From positions 159,955 through 223,954 of IMG/VR virus record IMGVR_UViG_3300027893_000003: a DNA stretch of 64,000 bases; one strand, 5' to 3'. A program made the translations under genes and the position numbers. Below are positions 2,021 to 61,166 of the stretch, piece by piece; within the stretch, counting starts at the first letter, position 1, and every line of letters starts with the position of its first letter. Below the pieces are notes generated by a model that was not told the DNA's origin, made no database searches, and was given only the letters and a program-made list of their open reading frames with translations. The DNA comes from a virus.

Positions 2021-2725
2021 TTATTTGGAAATTAGTTTCTGAACCTCACTAACCTTTGGAACCCTTGAGTTGACAGTGATAATCTTCCAACCATCTCGTT
2101 TCAATTTTTCATTTCTACGAGGATCTTCAAAGGCCATCCTGTTGTGCCAAAAGGCATTTGGGAATTCAAAGTCGATCTTATTTATAGGGTCAGCCATATC
2201 TGTGATAAATTCATATTCAAGATGATTTGTCATGAGGAATTTCTTTATCAGATAGTTGTTCTGAATAAAGGGATACTTCTGTCTCAAAAATTTGAGAATT
2301 TGAATTTTATCTCTTGGACTTCGAACATCTTCATCCTCAACATTATATGGTTCAGGATCCTTAACTTCATCACTTTGGAAGAGATCGCTTAGATCTGTAT
2401 CTTGAAGTTTTTCTTGAATTTCTTCAATTGTCGGGGCATGCTCATCATCTAATACTTCGTCGTCAGTAATTACGTCGTCTTCACCGGTTTGGTTTAAATC
2501 AACTTCAACAGGTTTCTCTTTGAAAATCTCAGGTTTAGATTGTACCTGTGACATTGTTAAGGAGAACATCTTTCCAGAAGTTGGTGCATCAGGATATTTC
2601 GCCTTATATTCATCAATAGACATGTTGTGTTTTCTCCGAGTGTGGGATCCAGTTAATACTTTGTAGGCTCCTCCACACTCTTGACAAATTACTTCACCCT
2701 TCTCGCTAAATTCGGGATATTTCAT
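2021..2725 (-). CDS. Vsr-like (EDxHD-type) endonuclease with MucR-type zinc finger
   Basis: Product of 234 aa. Residues 13-50 form a Cys2-His2 finger of the MucR/Ros type ([20 protein letters not shown]) followed by the [14 protein letters not shown] signature that often accompanies phage homing endonucleases. The middle is acidic and probably a linker. The C-terminal half carries a Vsr-like core: [11 protein letters not shown], then [20 protein letters not shown], matching the conserved acidic, His and RN-x5-GW positions of very-short-patch repair nucleases and related homing endonucleases. Cleavage of DNA is therefore likely; whether it is a homing enzyme or serves the phage is open. It stands alone on the minus strand with a good ribosome site (GAAAGGAGAAACTCA) and a GAACAAAATA-type motif upstream. 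Confidence 0.65.
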
Positions 2726-3662: not shown

Positions 3663-3700
3663 AGAGAGGCGCATATGAGAGATACACAGGAAACTCTAAT

Positions 3701-3843
3701 GGTAGGGGGAATGGCAACCGGAATGCTGGATGGTTGTTCTACCACCATCCAAGACGGTCGGGAGGACTCTTTTCCAAAGTTGGCGGTCTTTCCTCCTTTC
3801 AACTGCCAATACCGTCTTTGGGTTCGATTCCCACCCCCTACCA
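3701..3843 (+). ncRNA. tRNA-like structured RNA with very large variable domain
   Basis: The 3' end looks like a tRNA: a T-arm with a canonical TTCGATT loop (3823-3829, 4-bp stem) and an acceptor helix in which GGTAGGGGG (3701-3709) pairs with CCCCCTACC (3834-3842). The middle has a 7-bp hairpin (GGATGGT 3728-3734 with ACCATCC 3744-3750), an 8-bp helix (AAGACGGT 3751-3758 with ACCGTCTT 3811-3818) and inside it another 8-bp helix (TTGGCGGT 3780-3787 with ACTGCCAA 3802-3809, one G-U). A 9+4-bp acceptor/T branch is longer than the normal 7+5. The D-arm does not fit a standard tRNA, no 3' CCA is encoded in frame with the discriminator, and the molecule is about 143 nt. If the hairpin is an anticodon arm, TCT is the best-placed triplet. 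Its own terminator follows. It may be a degenerate tRNA, a tRNA mimic or a leader for the array. Confidence 0.55.
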
Positions 3844-3851
3844 CCCTTTAG

Positions 3852-3884
3852 AAAAAAAGGTACTCGTTATGAGTACTTTTTTTT
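3852..3884 (+). terminator. Rho-independent terminator between structured RNA and TIGR array
   Basis: GTACTC (3860-3865) pairs with GAGTAC (3871-3876) around GTTAT, flanked by an A-run and an 8-T run. It ends the tRNA-like RNA only 17 nt before the first array box, so the array either needs its own promoter in that gap or depends on read-through. Confidence 0.8.
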
Positions 3885-3901: not shown

Positions 3902-5428
3902 AGTGAACCATCGTGAAACAGATTACCTGAGCGAGAGAGTGAACCAAAGGAGAGAAATAGGAACCCTCCTAACCTCAGTGAACCTAACTTTATCAGTATC
4001 TAAACAGAATGAGTGAACCATGCATCCAGAAAAATTCATACCCGCCGAGTGAACCTGTGGTACAATTAATCCAATCAGTCTAGTGAACCAAGATAAAGAA
4101 GTATCTAAGAATCTTAAGTGAACCAAAATTGAGCAGAAATCAAATGACGAAAGTGAACCAGTAGTGATCAAAAAACTCAGACGTGGCGAGTGAATCAGAA
4201 GTGAGGATAATAACCAGAAAACGGGAATGAACCGGTCTGGGCGAGAAAACCATTCAAGGAAAGTGTAAAAAACCAGTCGGTGCAGGGCACCTTAGAGTGT
4301 ACCAATCCGAAATTAGTGTGAACCAAGCGAGGCCAGAAGACCAGGATTTTTGAGTGGACCGTTTTGGCGAAGTAACCCATCGTTGGAAAGTGAACCAGAT
4401 AAAGACACAAAAAATCATCATTGTTAAGTGAACCATAGCATATCAGGTAACCGATGCAAGGAGTGTACCTACGTTGGCTAGAAAATCCCGTACATGAAAG
4501 TGAACCAAAGTCTACAGCTAAACCATTATAGTCCAGTGAACCAATAAGCCCGGAGAAAACCTGGGAGCTGCAGTGAACCAGTTGAAGGCAGTTATTCATG
4601 ATGACTGAGTGAACCCAAAAAGTCATGCAAACCCATTTTTCAAAGTGAACCAACGACGAAAAAAATCTAATATGATAAAGTGGACCATTCCCCTGTAATA
4701 ATTCACATTCACCAAGTGAACCACCCAGCAACAGAAACCCAGTGCGCCGGAGTGAACCAATCTAAGGAAAAAAACCAATTTTTGAATAGTGAACCAACAG
4801 GGAGCAGAGGAATCCAGCGACACGGAGTGGACCATAAAATGTCAGAAACCCAAAAATTTGAGTGAACCAAGTGGGGGAGATTAACCTGAAAAAAGAGTGA
4901 ACCGTCCTCTCGCAGAAACCCAGCGCGTTGGAGTGGACCAAGTTACGTAGTAAAAACCCAATTGCCGAGTGAACCCGGAATGGATAAACAACCTAAGACG
5001 ATAAGTGAACCAGGTGGGGGAGAATATTCCGAAGAAAAAAGTGAACCTAGAATTGGGAGAAATCCTGTGGGTGTTAGTAAACCATGTAATTACAGCAACC
5101 CATTTCTATAAAGTGGACCTTCAAGCACAAAAAAATCAGAACTCAAAAGTGAACCGTATTGGCAAGGAAAAACCATTTGTTGGCAGTGAACCATCATTTG
5201 ATAAAATTCAAACATCCGGAGTGAACCAGAAGTCCGCAGTATCCAACGAACATGAGTGAACCTATATCTCTTAAAAAATCTAGAAGAAAAAGTGTACCAA
5301 GGAATAAGAAAAATCAATAAATTGTAGTGTACCAAGAGAAGCGTGTTTCCGATTCCAAAGAATCGAGACGTACCGGCACGTAGAGTGAACCATCGAATTA
5401 AAGAATCCCATATATATATAGTGAACCA
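3902..5428 (+). repeat. TIGR-type array (tandem interspaced guide RNA), about 43 units of 36 nt
   Basis: A strict box AGTGAACCA recurs 44 times; 30 copies hold GTGAACC exactly, five read GTGGACC, four GTGTACC and five are more degenerate. Start-to-start distances are almost all 34-39 nt and most often 36, with one short unit (21 nt at 4296) and an irregular stretch at 5326-5384. At about +18 in each unit lies a weaker related box, roughly AG(A/T)AA(A/C/T)C(C/T)A, so each unit is strict box, 8-10-nt spacer, weak box, 8-10-nt spacer. The spacers differ between units. This matches the edge repeat, spacer A, loop repeat, spacer B plan of TIGR arrays, which are processed to 36-nt tigRNAs. The last box overlaps the ribosome site of the Tas gene, so array and protein are one locus. 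It is not coding: the strict box itself contains TGA. Confidence 0.9.
5350..5365 (+). other. Hairpin inside the irregular last part of the array
   Basis: CGATTC (5350-5355) pairs perfectly with GAATCG (5360-5365) around a CAAA loop. It replaces the normal weak-box region in the 58-nt stretch 5326-5384, just before the final two strict boxes, and may mark a decayed unit or a structural end of the guide precursor. Confidence 0.5.
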
Positions 5429-5440
5429 AGGAGAAGTGTT

Positions 5441-6604
5441 ATGGCTAAGGAAGTTTTAGAACCTATAAAATCAATCGCAGATGTTTTCAAGGGCAGAGGT
5501 TTTAGCATACCTGTGCAACCTGTACCTGAGTTGTGGAGTCCAAAGATTGAATTGAGAGGATTAATTAGAGGATATGACGATATTCAGAGGGATAGGATCA
5601 GGATGGGAAATAGGATTCTTGGTAATCTATATCGTCGCTTTGGACTAAAACCGGGAGAAAAGAAAGAAGGTCTTTATGGTCTCCCAAAAGAGTTAATGGG
5701 ACTTATCTCTAGAGAATACAAGAGAATCACTGACGGTGTTGTGATAAACATGAAAGAGATTCCTAAGATTATGAAGGATGCACACCCTGGTATAATCTCT
5801 GGTGAAATTATGTTTATATTTGTTGACACCTATATATCTCTTGTCAAACAGGAGTACAAGATCAATAAGCAAATTGAGAAATTTCTTGATGAGTTTCCAA
5901 TCTGGACAGAATTCCTGAAAGGACTTGAAGGAGTTGGTCCTACAATGGGCGGCGTTCTTGTGAGCGAACTTGATCCTCATAGGGCAAACCATGTCACCGC
6001 ATTTTGGAGTTATGCTGGTCTTGACGTGGTATGGACTCTAGATGAGATCGAAGGTGAAGAGGTTGTCAGAGGAGAAGGTAGAAGTAAGAAATCTCACCAC
6101 TTAGTCGATAGGGAATATACAGATAAGTCTGGTAAAACCAAAACAAAGAAGAGTATAACATATTCCCCATACCTAAAAACAAAACTCCATGTCCTGGCAA
6201 CCAGTTTCCTTCGTAAGCAAGATAATATTTATTCACCTATTTTCTATGATTACAGAACTAGAATGCAGGGAAGAAGGGAGTTCTTCATAAGAGCTCTAAG
6301 GCAAAAACAAATCCTCTATAAAAAAGACCCCCATGATTCTGAGGGAACCCTGACCATTAACTCTGAGAAATATGAGTTATGTAAGAAATGGTTGGCAAAA
6401 CAGAAAAAACAACCAACTCTAAAAGAAGCAAAGAAGTTTGTCTTGAGTAATATCATAAGCGATAACCATATAAAGAATATGAGTATTCGCTATATGCTCA
6501 AAATATTTCTTCTTGACTTCTGGAGGAAGTGGAGGGAGTTAGAAGGACTACCGATATCCGCTCCATATGAAGAAGAAAAATTGGGTATCGTACATTCTAG
6601 GTGA
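5441..6604 (+). CDS. tas: TasA-like Nop-domain protein of a TIGR-Tas system
   Basis: Product of 387 aa. Residues 34-70 form the start of a coiled-coil-like region (IELRGLIRGYDDIQRDRIRM). Residues 160-194 carry the helix-hairpin-helix signature LEGVGPTMGGVLVSELD...FWSYAGL, shared by the C-terminal (Transposase_20) domain of IS110 enzymes and the Nop domain of box C/D and Tas proteins. Residues 240-365 are basic and helical (KTKLHVLATSFLRKQ, then RYMLKIFLLDFWRKW). There is no N-terminal DEDD/RuvC domain as in IS110 or TasR, and no HNH motif, so this fits the stand-alone TasA class: a predicted RNA-guided DNA-binding protein without nuclease. The start follows AAGGAGAAGTGTT, which overlaps the last array box. 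A terminator follows. The main alternative is a truncated IS110 transposase, made unlikely by the array and the intact length. Confidence 0.85.
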   Translation: MAKEVLEPIKSIADVFKGRGFSIPVQPVPELWSPKIELRGLIRGYDDIQRDRIRMGNRILGNLYRRFGLKPGEKKEGLYGLPKELMGLISREYKRITDGVVINMKEIPKIMKDAHPGIISGEIMFIFVDTYISLVKQEYKINKQIEKFLDEFPIWTEFLKGLEGVGPTMGGVLVSELDPHRANHVTAFWSYAGLDVVWTLDEIEGEEVVRGEGRSKKSHHLVDREYTDKSGKTKTKKSITYSPYLKTKLHVLATSFLRKQDNIYSPIFYDYRTRMQGRREFFIRALRQKQILYKKDPHDSEGTLTINSEKYELCKKWLAKQKKQPTLKEAKKFVLSNIISDNHIKNMSIRYMLKIFLLDFWRKWRELEGLPISAPYEEEKLGIVHSR

Positions 6605-6626: not shown

Positions 6627-6667
6627 AAAGACCCCAAGTTATTAATATACTTGAGGTCTTTTTTTTG
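6627..6667 (+). terminator. Rho-independent terminator after tas
   Basis: AAAGACC-CAAGT (6627-6639, one mismatch) pairs with ACTTG-GGTCTTT (6649-6661) and leads into an uninterrupted T-run. It ends the TIGR-Tas locus. Confidence 0.85.
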
Positions 6668-6687
6668 GTTATATAAAAAACCTCCTG

Positions 6688-30901: not shown

Positions 30902-31838
30902 CTTTCATCTCCATTACAAGGTTTTGATAAAAGTTGTCAATCTTTTCTTGATTAAGAAGCTTGGGAACTTTTAAACCTCTAACTCCCTTCCCATCAGTCC
31001 ATCTTAGAATTTCGAATAACTCATCTATTCCACTATAAAGATATTCATCTGGTAATAGCTCAGGATATGAAAAACCTCTAGGAGCAATTGGTATACAATT
31101 ATTTATTACCGCATCAATAACTTGGTAACCATAACACTCTTCCTTACTAGTAATTAACATACACTCCGAGCTCCCTAGAAAATCATAATAACCATACCAT
31201 TCTAAAAATTGAGGAGCATCAATTATTTCTCCATATCTCTTTCTTACGGCGTCTTCAATTGACTTAGTCCTTTTTTGAACAGAGTGTCTAGCAACTGAGA
31301 CAATAGGATAAACCTTCTCGGAGTTACAACCCTTAAATGAAGGATTAGGTAATGCTCCTAAATTTACAACATTTGTCCACCCCAATTTTTTCTTATGGTA
31401 TTCACTAGCAACAAATACTTTTTTATATGATCTCGCATGACCACACTCAACTGCCTCTTTACTGTTTCTGACTGGGGTAAAGTAATCAAGTTTGTTCTTT
31501 GAAGTGGCGTGACACATCACAAATGCGTTCTTGACCTGTTTATGATGCAATACGTTATGAAATATACCAGGAAAACTAAGATCCGCGTGAAGTAGAAAAT
31601 CGCTATCTCCTAAGTCATAATTTAAAAACTCATTGACTTGTTTACATTCAAATTTAATTGCTCTTTCAATATTTGAGAAATCCTTGCCGCTAGAAACACC
31701 CTCAGTAAAAGCATATTGTTCACCCACTACAATAATTTTATCAAAATACTTAGATAATTGCTCTGGAATCTGTGTGAACCACCATTCCTGATATCTCATC
31801 TTTATTGGCAATTGTGGAACAAAAAATAATCTACTCAC
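30891..31838 (-). CDS. Glycosyltransferase, GT-B fold
   Basis: Product of 315 aa, started by GTG behind GGAGAAGAGG. The second half has the GT4-like donor-site pattern: [20 protein letters not shown], then [20 protein letters not shown] and [12 protein letters not shown], equivalent to the E-x7-E region of family 4 enzymes with some change. It probably moves a sugar onto a glycan, a virion protein or modified DNA; the acceptor is unknown. It overlaps the deaminase gene by 8 nt. Confidence 0.65.
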
Positions 31839-32298
31839 CCTCTTCTCCTTTCCAATGAATTAACCTAATATTCGCTTCTTCGAGCATCTCTTTTGTCTCT
31901 GGAGCATTGTAGTACTCTTCATAGTATATCTCTGATATACCTGAGTTTATTAGAAGTTTAGAACATATAAAACATGGAAATGTTGTACAATAAACAGTCG
32001 CACCTTCACTGGATATGCCACGTTTTGATGCTTGAGCGATTAGGTTTTGCTCGGCATGTACAGCTCTACATAACTCATGCTTTTCACCAGATGGAATATT
32101 TAACTCTTCTCTTAAACACCCTATATCGAGACAATGCTTTTGTCCAGTCGGTGCTCCATTATACCCTGTCGCTATTACTTGCCGATCCTTAACTAGGACA
32201 GCTCCAACTTTTCTCCTTAGTCAAGTTGAACGGCTCTTAGCTAAATGGGCCATTTCCATAAAGTATTTATTCCAACTAGGTCTCTCTACATTATCCAT
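31831..32298 (-). pseudogene. dCMP deaminase (ComEB-type) interrupted by an in-frame TGA at a conserved Cys position
   Basis: The frame encodes 155 residues with one stop, TGA at 32221-32223 (codon 26). Around it the sequence reads SRST[16 protein letters not shown], where family members have Cys between RST and LRR. All other motifs are intact: TGYNGAP, KHC...[18 protein letters not shown], the catalytic VHAEQN and the zinc pair PCFIC. No start codon with a ribosome site follows the stop. The reaction is dCMP to dUMP, feeding thymidylate synthase. Either a single-base nonsense mutation or sequencing error (TGT/TGC to TGA) has hit it, or UGA is read through, for example as selenocysteine; a weak stem (CTA-GGA with TCC-TAG) follows the stop. 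TGA is a normal stop in several other genes here. Confidence 0.75.
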
Positions 32299-60929: not shown

Positions 60930-61073
60930 TTTAACGTATAAGGCGTATGCCCAAAAGCACTTTGGTGTGGTGAAACCAATGAACCACACCGGAGTGTCAT
61001 AAATCATTATCATAAATCAGGGAAAATGTGGTTCTGTAAATCTTTAATTTTATTCAAATTTTTATGGCCTCTT

Positions 61074-61166
61074 GAATATACTTTTTGGGTAATGAATATA
61101 CTTTTTGGGTAATGAATATACTTTTTGGGTAATGAATATACTTTTTGGGTAATGAATATACTTTTT
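61074..61166. repeat. Iteron-like 20-bp direct repeats (4 full, 1 partial)
   Basis: GAATATACTTTTTGGGTAAT is repeated head to tail without spacers at 61074, 61094, 61114 and 61134, with a 13-nt partial copy at 61154. Copies are identical. The unit length, lack of spacers and position beside a Rep-like gene are typical of replication-origin iterons. The interval 60891-61169 holds no gene, only the leader of the 663-aa gene and these repeats. Confidence 0.8.

What the first reader, a model, noticed from the sequence alone, without database searches (positions are those of the whole stretch)
3902..6604. Phage-borne TIGR-Tas-type RNA-guided locus
Seen: about 43 units with a modal period of 36 nt, each with a strict AGTGAACCA box, a weaker related box at +18 and two short variable spacers, joined to a 387-aa protein with an IS110-C-terminal / Nop-like helix-hairpin-helix signature (LEGVGPTMGG...YAGL). 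Known: TIGR-Tas systems combine such arrays, processed to 36-nt tigRNAs with tandem spacers, with Nop-domain Tas proteins in phages and parasitic bacteria. Inference: this is a TasA-class member whose guides direct DNA binding.
Basis: partly seen in the sequence, partly recalled or inferred. Interest (0 to 1): 0.95.

Follow-up and report, generated by a model that had tools for sequence, protein, structure and literature searches.

The report
Phage TIGR-TasA guide-RNA system
A ~277-kb bacteriophage carries a long array of paired 9-letter RNA guides next to one RNA-binding (TasA) gene, a member of the TIGR-Tas class of RNA-guided DNA-binding systems described in 2025; the less expected part is a second guide array with no Tas gene, and guides that related phages keep in common.

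Summary
The array (3902-5428) has 42 edge boxes within one mismatch of AGTGAACC, modal period 36 nt, parsed as 9-nt edge / 9-nt spacer A / 9-nt loop / 9-nt spacer B. It abuts a 387-aa gene (5441-6604) that passes NCBI's curated TIGR-Tas model and whose confident AlphaFold model matches solved TasH and TasR first, then IS621, then archaeal Nop5. There is no room for an N-terminal nuclease, so it is TasA type. Scanning IMG/VR for the array pattern alone gave 204 loci; 125 hold a Tas gene (0 of 38 control loci). So this is a new member of a known kind. New here: (1) the phage has a second array of about 29 guides ~134 kb away with no tas gene, so one TasA probably serves both; (2) in related phages most guides are replaced, yet a subset stays nearly identical and some sit in the other array, as if selected for an external target; (3) no guide pair has a target in the phage or in 2.2 Mb of viral DNA above controls. 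Processing, DNA binding and biological role are inferred from characterised relatives, not shown here.

The parts
3852..3884 (.). intrinsic-terminator-like hairpin 17 nt before the first edge repeat
   Evidence: conserved in L003
3902..5428 (+). TIGR dual-repeat array: edge repeat AGTGAACC(A), 9-nt spacer A, loop repeat AGAAANCC(A), 9-nt spacer B; 42 edge boxes within one mismatch, about 38 regular guide units
4261..4316 (+). irregular element inside the array, about 92% identical to the 83%-TasA relative although neighbouring spacers are replaced
5326..5383 (+). irregular unit that folds as a hairpin; a pairing change (G-C to A-U) and a wobble change keep the stem in L003
5420..5440 (+). last edge repeat, directly followed by the ribosome-binding site (AAGGAG) of tasA
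   Evidence: sequence; same junction in L003
5441..6604 (+). tasA: 387-aa solo-Nop TIGR-associated protein
6627..6668 (+). probable intrinsic terminator of the array-tasA unit (AAAGACCCCAAGT..ACTTGAGGTCTTTTTTTT)
   Evidence: read from the sequence; 9-nt loop, so outside the limits of the scan

Best explanation
A TIGR-TasA system of a ~277-kb tailed phage. The array and tasA lie between two terminator-like hairpins and are probably one transcript. Cuts inside each edge repeat would release 36-nt tigRNAs (half edge, spacer A, loop, spacer B, half edge). A TasA dimer holds one tigRNA, its two Nop domains gripping the AG..CC boxes of edge and loop. Spacers A and B pair with opposite strands of an 18-bp site whose one strand reads A followed by the reverse complement of B. 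With no nuclease, TasA would bind and bend DNA and so block transcription or replication there, most likely on a competing element or the host. A second, tas-less array elsewhere in the genome feeds the same TasA in trans. Shown: array anatomy, protein family and fold, gene-array linkage, second array, guide conservation and turnover between phages. Inferred: transcription, processing, DNA binding, blocking role, use of the second array. The confidence below is for membership and the guide-binding mode; for the blocking role against a rival element or the host it is about 0.5.
For: NF052498 above cut-off; phmmer to TasR 9mty (3e-13) and TasH 21kl (1e-5); AlphaFold pLDDT 86, pTM 0.83 from 97 array-linked homologues; Foldseek top hits TasH/TasR, E down to 3.5e-8, prob 1.00. 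Array geometry equals the published one (PMC12045711). Of 204 loci found by array pattern only, 125 hold a Tas ORF vs 0 of 38 control loci; for the 123 Tas ORFs with a parsed array the strand is the same in all and the median distance is 28 bp. One Tas gene but two arrays in the genome. Guides conserved in related phages while loops drift.
Against: No sigma-70-like promoter fits between the upstream terminator and the first edge. Expression, processing and DNA binding are untested. The Foldseek TM-score is moderate (0.4-0.7) because TasA has inserts absent from TasR/TasH and complex conformations differ.
Confidence: 0.9

Rival explanations
1. The gene is an IS110-family transposase, or a decayed one, next to an unrelated repeat.
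For: Pfam Transposase_20 above cut-off; PHROGs 'transposase' families.
Against: Only the C-terminal helix-hairpin-helix part matches; IS110's N-terminal DEDD/RuvC domain is absent (about 36 aa precede the Nop region); NF033542 transpos_IS110 scores 30.6 of the 140 bits needed; Foldseek ranks TasH/TasR well above IS621; array linkage recurs in 125 loci.
Confidence: 0.02
2. TIGR-TasA that regulates the phage's or host's own genes rather than acting against rival elements (a rival on the role, not on the membership).
For: No nuclease; a subset of guides is nearly identical between phages whose flanking DNA is 76-79% identical, as expected for a stable target.
Against: No guide pair of G000 or G003 matches its own phage genome above shuffled controls, so phage self-regulation with near-full pairing is unlikely; a host target stays open because the host is unknown.
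Confidence: 0.3
3. RNA-directed use of the guides (box C/D snoRNA-like targeting of RNA).
For: Nop fold and box C/D-like motifs are shared with snoRNPs; the genome carries tRNA genes and a tRNA-like RNA.
Against: Characterised TasR did not cleave RNA and TasR/TasH work on DNA (PMC12045711); fibrillarin and L7Ae partners were not seen among the few neighbouring genes scanned (not searched genome-wide).
Confidence: 0.04

Closest known systems
TIGR-TasA dual-repeat systems (Faure et al. 2025, PMC12045711; e.g. FpTIGR)
   Same: Solo-Nop protein beside an array of edge-A-loop-B units, 36-nt unit, 9-nt spacers, shared boxes in edge and loop, phage host
   Different: 42 edge boxes against the usual 5-15 units; box D is AG rather than UG; a second, tas-less array in the same genome; about 100 aa of inserts compared with many array-linked TasA proteins
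TIGR-TasH of Salicola phage CGphi29 (L019)
   Same: Related boxes: edge AAGCGAGCCA and loop AGACAACCA against AGTGAACCA and AGAAANCCA here; same Nop fold
   Different: TasH has an N-terminal HNH nuclease; none here
IS110/IS621 bridge-RNA recombinases
   Same: Transposase_20/Nop-like helix-hairpin-helix; two-part guide RNA
   Different: No DEDD/RuvC domain and no transposon ends seen here; guides are in a long array
Archaeal box C/D snoRNP Nop5
   Same: Nop fold; paired guides flanked by C/D-like boxes
   Different: Weak Foldseek match (E 0.3-0.8); methylation partners not seen

Membership tests
TIGR-Tas | Nop-domain Tas protein | tested here: met
   NF052498 116.5 bits > 100; Foldseek TasH/TasR top
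TIGR-Tas | Adjacent dual-repeat array, two alternating 8-12 nt repeats with ~9-nt spacers | tested here: met
   9/9/9/9 layout by information content
[quoted passage not shown]
   AG..CC(A) in both repeats; AG..CCA also in TasH CGphi29
TIGR-Tas | Array processed to 36-nt tigRNAs | not testable with these tools
   modal unit is 36 nt; no RNA data
TIGR-Tas | tigRNA-directed binding of both strands of duplex DNA | not testable with these tools
   known for TasR/TasH only from the paper
TasA subtype | No N-terminal HNH or RuvC nuclease | tested here: met
   Pfam finds only Transposase_20; the Nop region starts near residue 37
IS110 transposase | N-terminal DEDD/RuvC catalytic domain | tested here: not met
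IS110 transposase | NCBIfam transpos_IS110 cut-off (140 bits) | tested here: not met
   30.6 bits
CRISPR array | Long identical repeats with single spacers, and cas genes | tested here: not met
   8-9 nt repeats, two repeat types; no cas gene among the proteins scanned, PADLOC silent for the adjacent gene

The most novel reading that the evidence does not exclude
Split-repertoire TIGR system: one TasA serves a tas-linked and a distant tas-less array; guides move between the two arrays, and a core set is kept by purifying selection in diverging phages because it recognises a conserved external target (host or rival element).
Probability: 0.45. Interest if true: 0.62.

Novelty: new member of a known kind. 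Interest (0 to 1): 0.45.

Why it matters
Natural targets and array evolution of TIGR systems are named as open questions in the founding paper. This phage group gives related genomes in which some guide pairs are kept and most are replaced, and in which guides turn up in different arrays. That makes both questions testable: the kept guides are the best candidates for target hunting, and the tas-less array tests supply in trans.

Tried and rejected
Self-targeting: pairs A+rc(B), gap 0-2, against G000, G002 and G003, with other orders and shuffled pairings as controls: no excess. Conserved guide GAAGTCCGC/ACGAACATG: 0 hits in viral contigs; 24 in genome contigs where about 22 are expected by a simple base-count estimate, scattered over taxa. 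Conserved guide TTCGATGAA/TTGTAAAAC: 13 hits falling into about six site groups, several in near-identical contigs. First structure model with two sequences failed (pLDDT 33). Two protein-based scans of viral contigs found only three near relatives; a genome-contig scan found none. Edge repeat abutting a start codon as a general rule: only weakly enriched, 23 vs 14.5 expected, so it is a habit of this phage group at most.

Full report
What is there. The window is the last 64 kb of a 223,954-base virus record. A 277,131-base record (G002) holds the same phage almost identically, with the two records permuted relative to each other, which fits a circular or circularly permuted genome of about 277 kb. 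The window encodes a gp23-type capsid protein, portal, DnaB-like helicase and DNA polymerase, so it is a tailed phage. From 3902 to 5428 on the + strand lies an array with 42 boxes within one mismatch of AGTGAACC. All 29 exact copies in the window are in it; 1.4 are expected by chance. Column information over 52 exact 36-nt units gives edge AGTGAACC(A), nine variable bases, loop A-G-A-A-A-N-C-C-(A), nine variable bases. That is the published TIGR layout (PMC12045711): 36 nt, 9-nt spacers, the same boxes in edge and loop.

The protein. The gene at 5441-6604 starts 13 nt after the last edge box; its ribosome-binding site touches that box. NCBIfam NF052498 TIGR_Tas_endo scores 116.5 bits against a cut-off of 100, and the IS110 transposase model scores 30.6 against 140. 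I collected array loci from IMG/VR by DNA pattern only and found Tas ORFs in 125 of 204 such loci and in 0 of 38 control loci; among the 123 Tas ORFs with a parsed array in the locus the strand is always the same and the median distance is 28 bp. An alignment of 97 of these proteins gave an AlphaFold model with pLDDT 86 and pTM 0.83. Its best PDB matches are TasH and TasR complexes, then IS621 and ISCro4, then archaeal Nop5; in the viral library the best is a phage 'IS110 family' protein, E 5e-20. About 36 residues precede the Nop region, so there is no nuclease domain: TasA.

A second array. The same genome has another array at G000 31150-32132 (+), about 29 guides, about 134 kb from tasA on this record. 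A profile from the 97 Tas proteins finds only one Tas gene in the 277-kb record (its two rows are two parts of one gene). So the second array has no tas gene of its own; TasA very likely serves both, which is inference. Its last edge also abuts the ribosome-binding site of the next gene. Three other contigs (L047, L050, L073) carry the same array-2 locus with flanking DNA 76-79% identical over the longer aligned blocks and no Tas on the fragments held.

Guides between relatives. Against the phage whose TasA is 83% identical (L003), about nine or ten of 41 units keep both spacers, mostly in the same order; the rest have no recognisable partner, so units were gained and lost rather than slowly mutated. 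Some kept guides sit in the other array: window guide 5220 (GAAGTCCGC/ACGAACATG) is identical in array 2 of L047, L050 and L073, and two array-2 guides of this phage lie in array 1 of L003. If homologues are chosen by spacer A alone, spacer B differs by 15% and the loop by 29% (17 guides, Wilcoxon p 0.006); chosen by B, spacer A differs by 17% and the loop by 29% (15 guides, p 0.08). The units are related by descent, and pairs more than 5 edits apart in the other spacer were left out as false matches, which favours conservation, so the p-values are indicative only. The pattern fits selection on the guide rather than on the loop, as expected if guides have a target.

Targets. The published overhang and cut rules imply that one target strand reads A followed by the reverse complement of B; this is my derivation from the text of the paper. 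The phage therefore does not appear to target itself; what it does target is unknown.

Verdict. The finding is a well-supported TIGR-TasA member, a known kind. Array size is at the high end but not unique: arrays of 30-46 boxes occur in other contigs. What adds interest is the tas-less second array and the comparison of guides between related phages, for which I found no counterpart in the one primary paper held (its supplements could not be read).

Noticed in passing
window 3698-3846 (+): tRNA-like structured RNA: 9-10 bp acceptor-like stem, T-arm GGGTTCGATTCCC, a long hairpin with compensatory changes against L003, and a large extra domain; fold z-score -4.4. ARAGORN finds no tRNA here and no Rfam family reaches its cut-off (best tRNA-Sec, 22 of 47 bits). 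A pattern from it occurs in only three IMG/VR contigs.
   Followed up: partly
G000:C1 31150-32160 (L006 11150-12160): Second TIGR array, about 29 guides, no tas gene nearby; tRNA-His just upstream and tRNA-Trp/Cys 2 kb further.
   Followed up: yes
L003 5390-5665: A 91-aa ORF of unknown function sits inside the array of the relative, with its ribosome-binding site abutting an edge repeat.
   Followed up: partly
window 4261-4316 and 5326-5383: Two irregular elements in the array conserved in the relative, one a hairpin with compensating changes; possibly stem-loop-type guides or regulatory sites.
   Followed up: partly
window 61073-61166: Perfect 20-bp tandem repeat, 4.7 copies (TGAATATACTTTTTGGGTAA), in an intergenic gap.
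   Followed up: no
window 2021-2725 (-): 234-aa protein with a ROS/MucR zinc-finger-like N-terminus (Pfam, 28.3 bits, cut-off 25.4).
   Followed up: no
L017 2956-3639 (Arthrobacter phage Talia1610): Weak Tas-like protein (profile E 4e-40) with no dual-repeat array detected nearby by a period-36 motif check.
   Followed up: no
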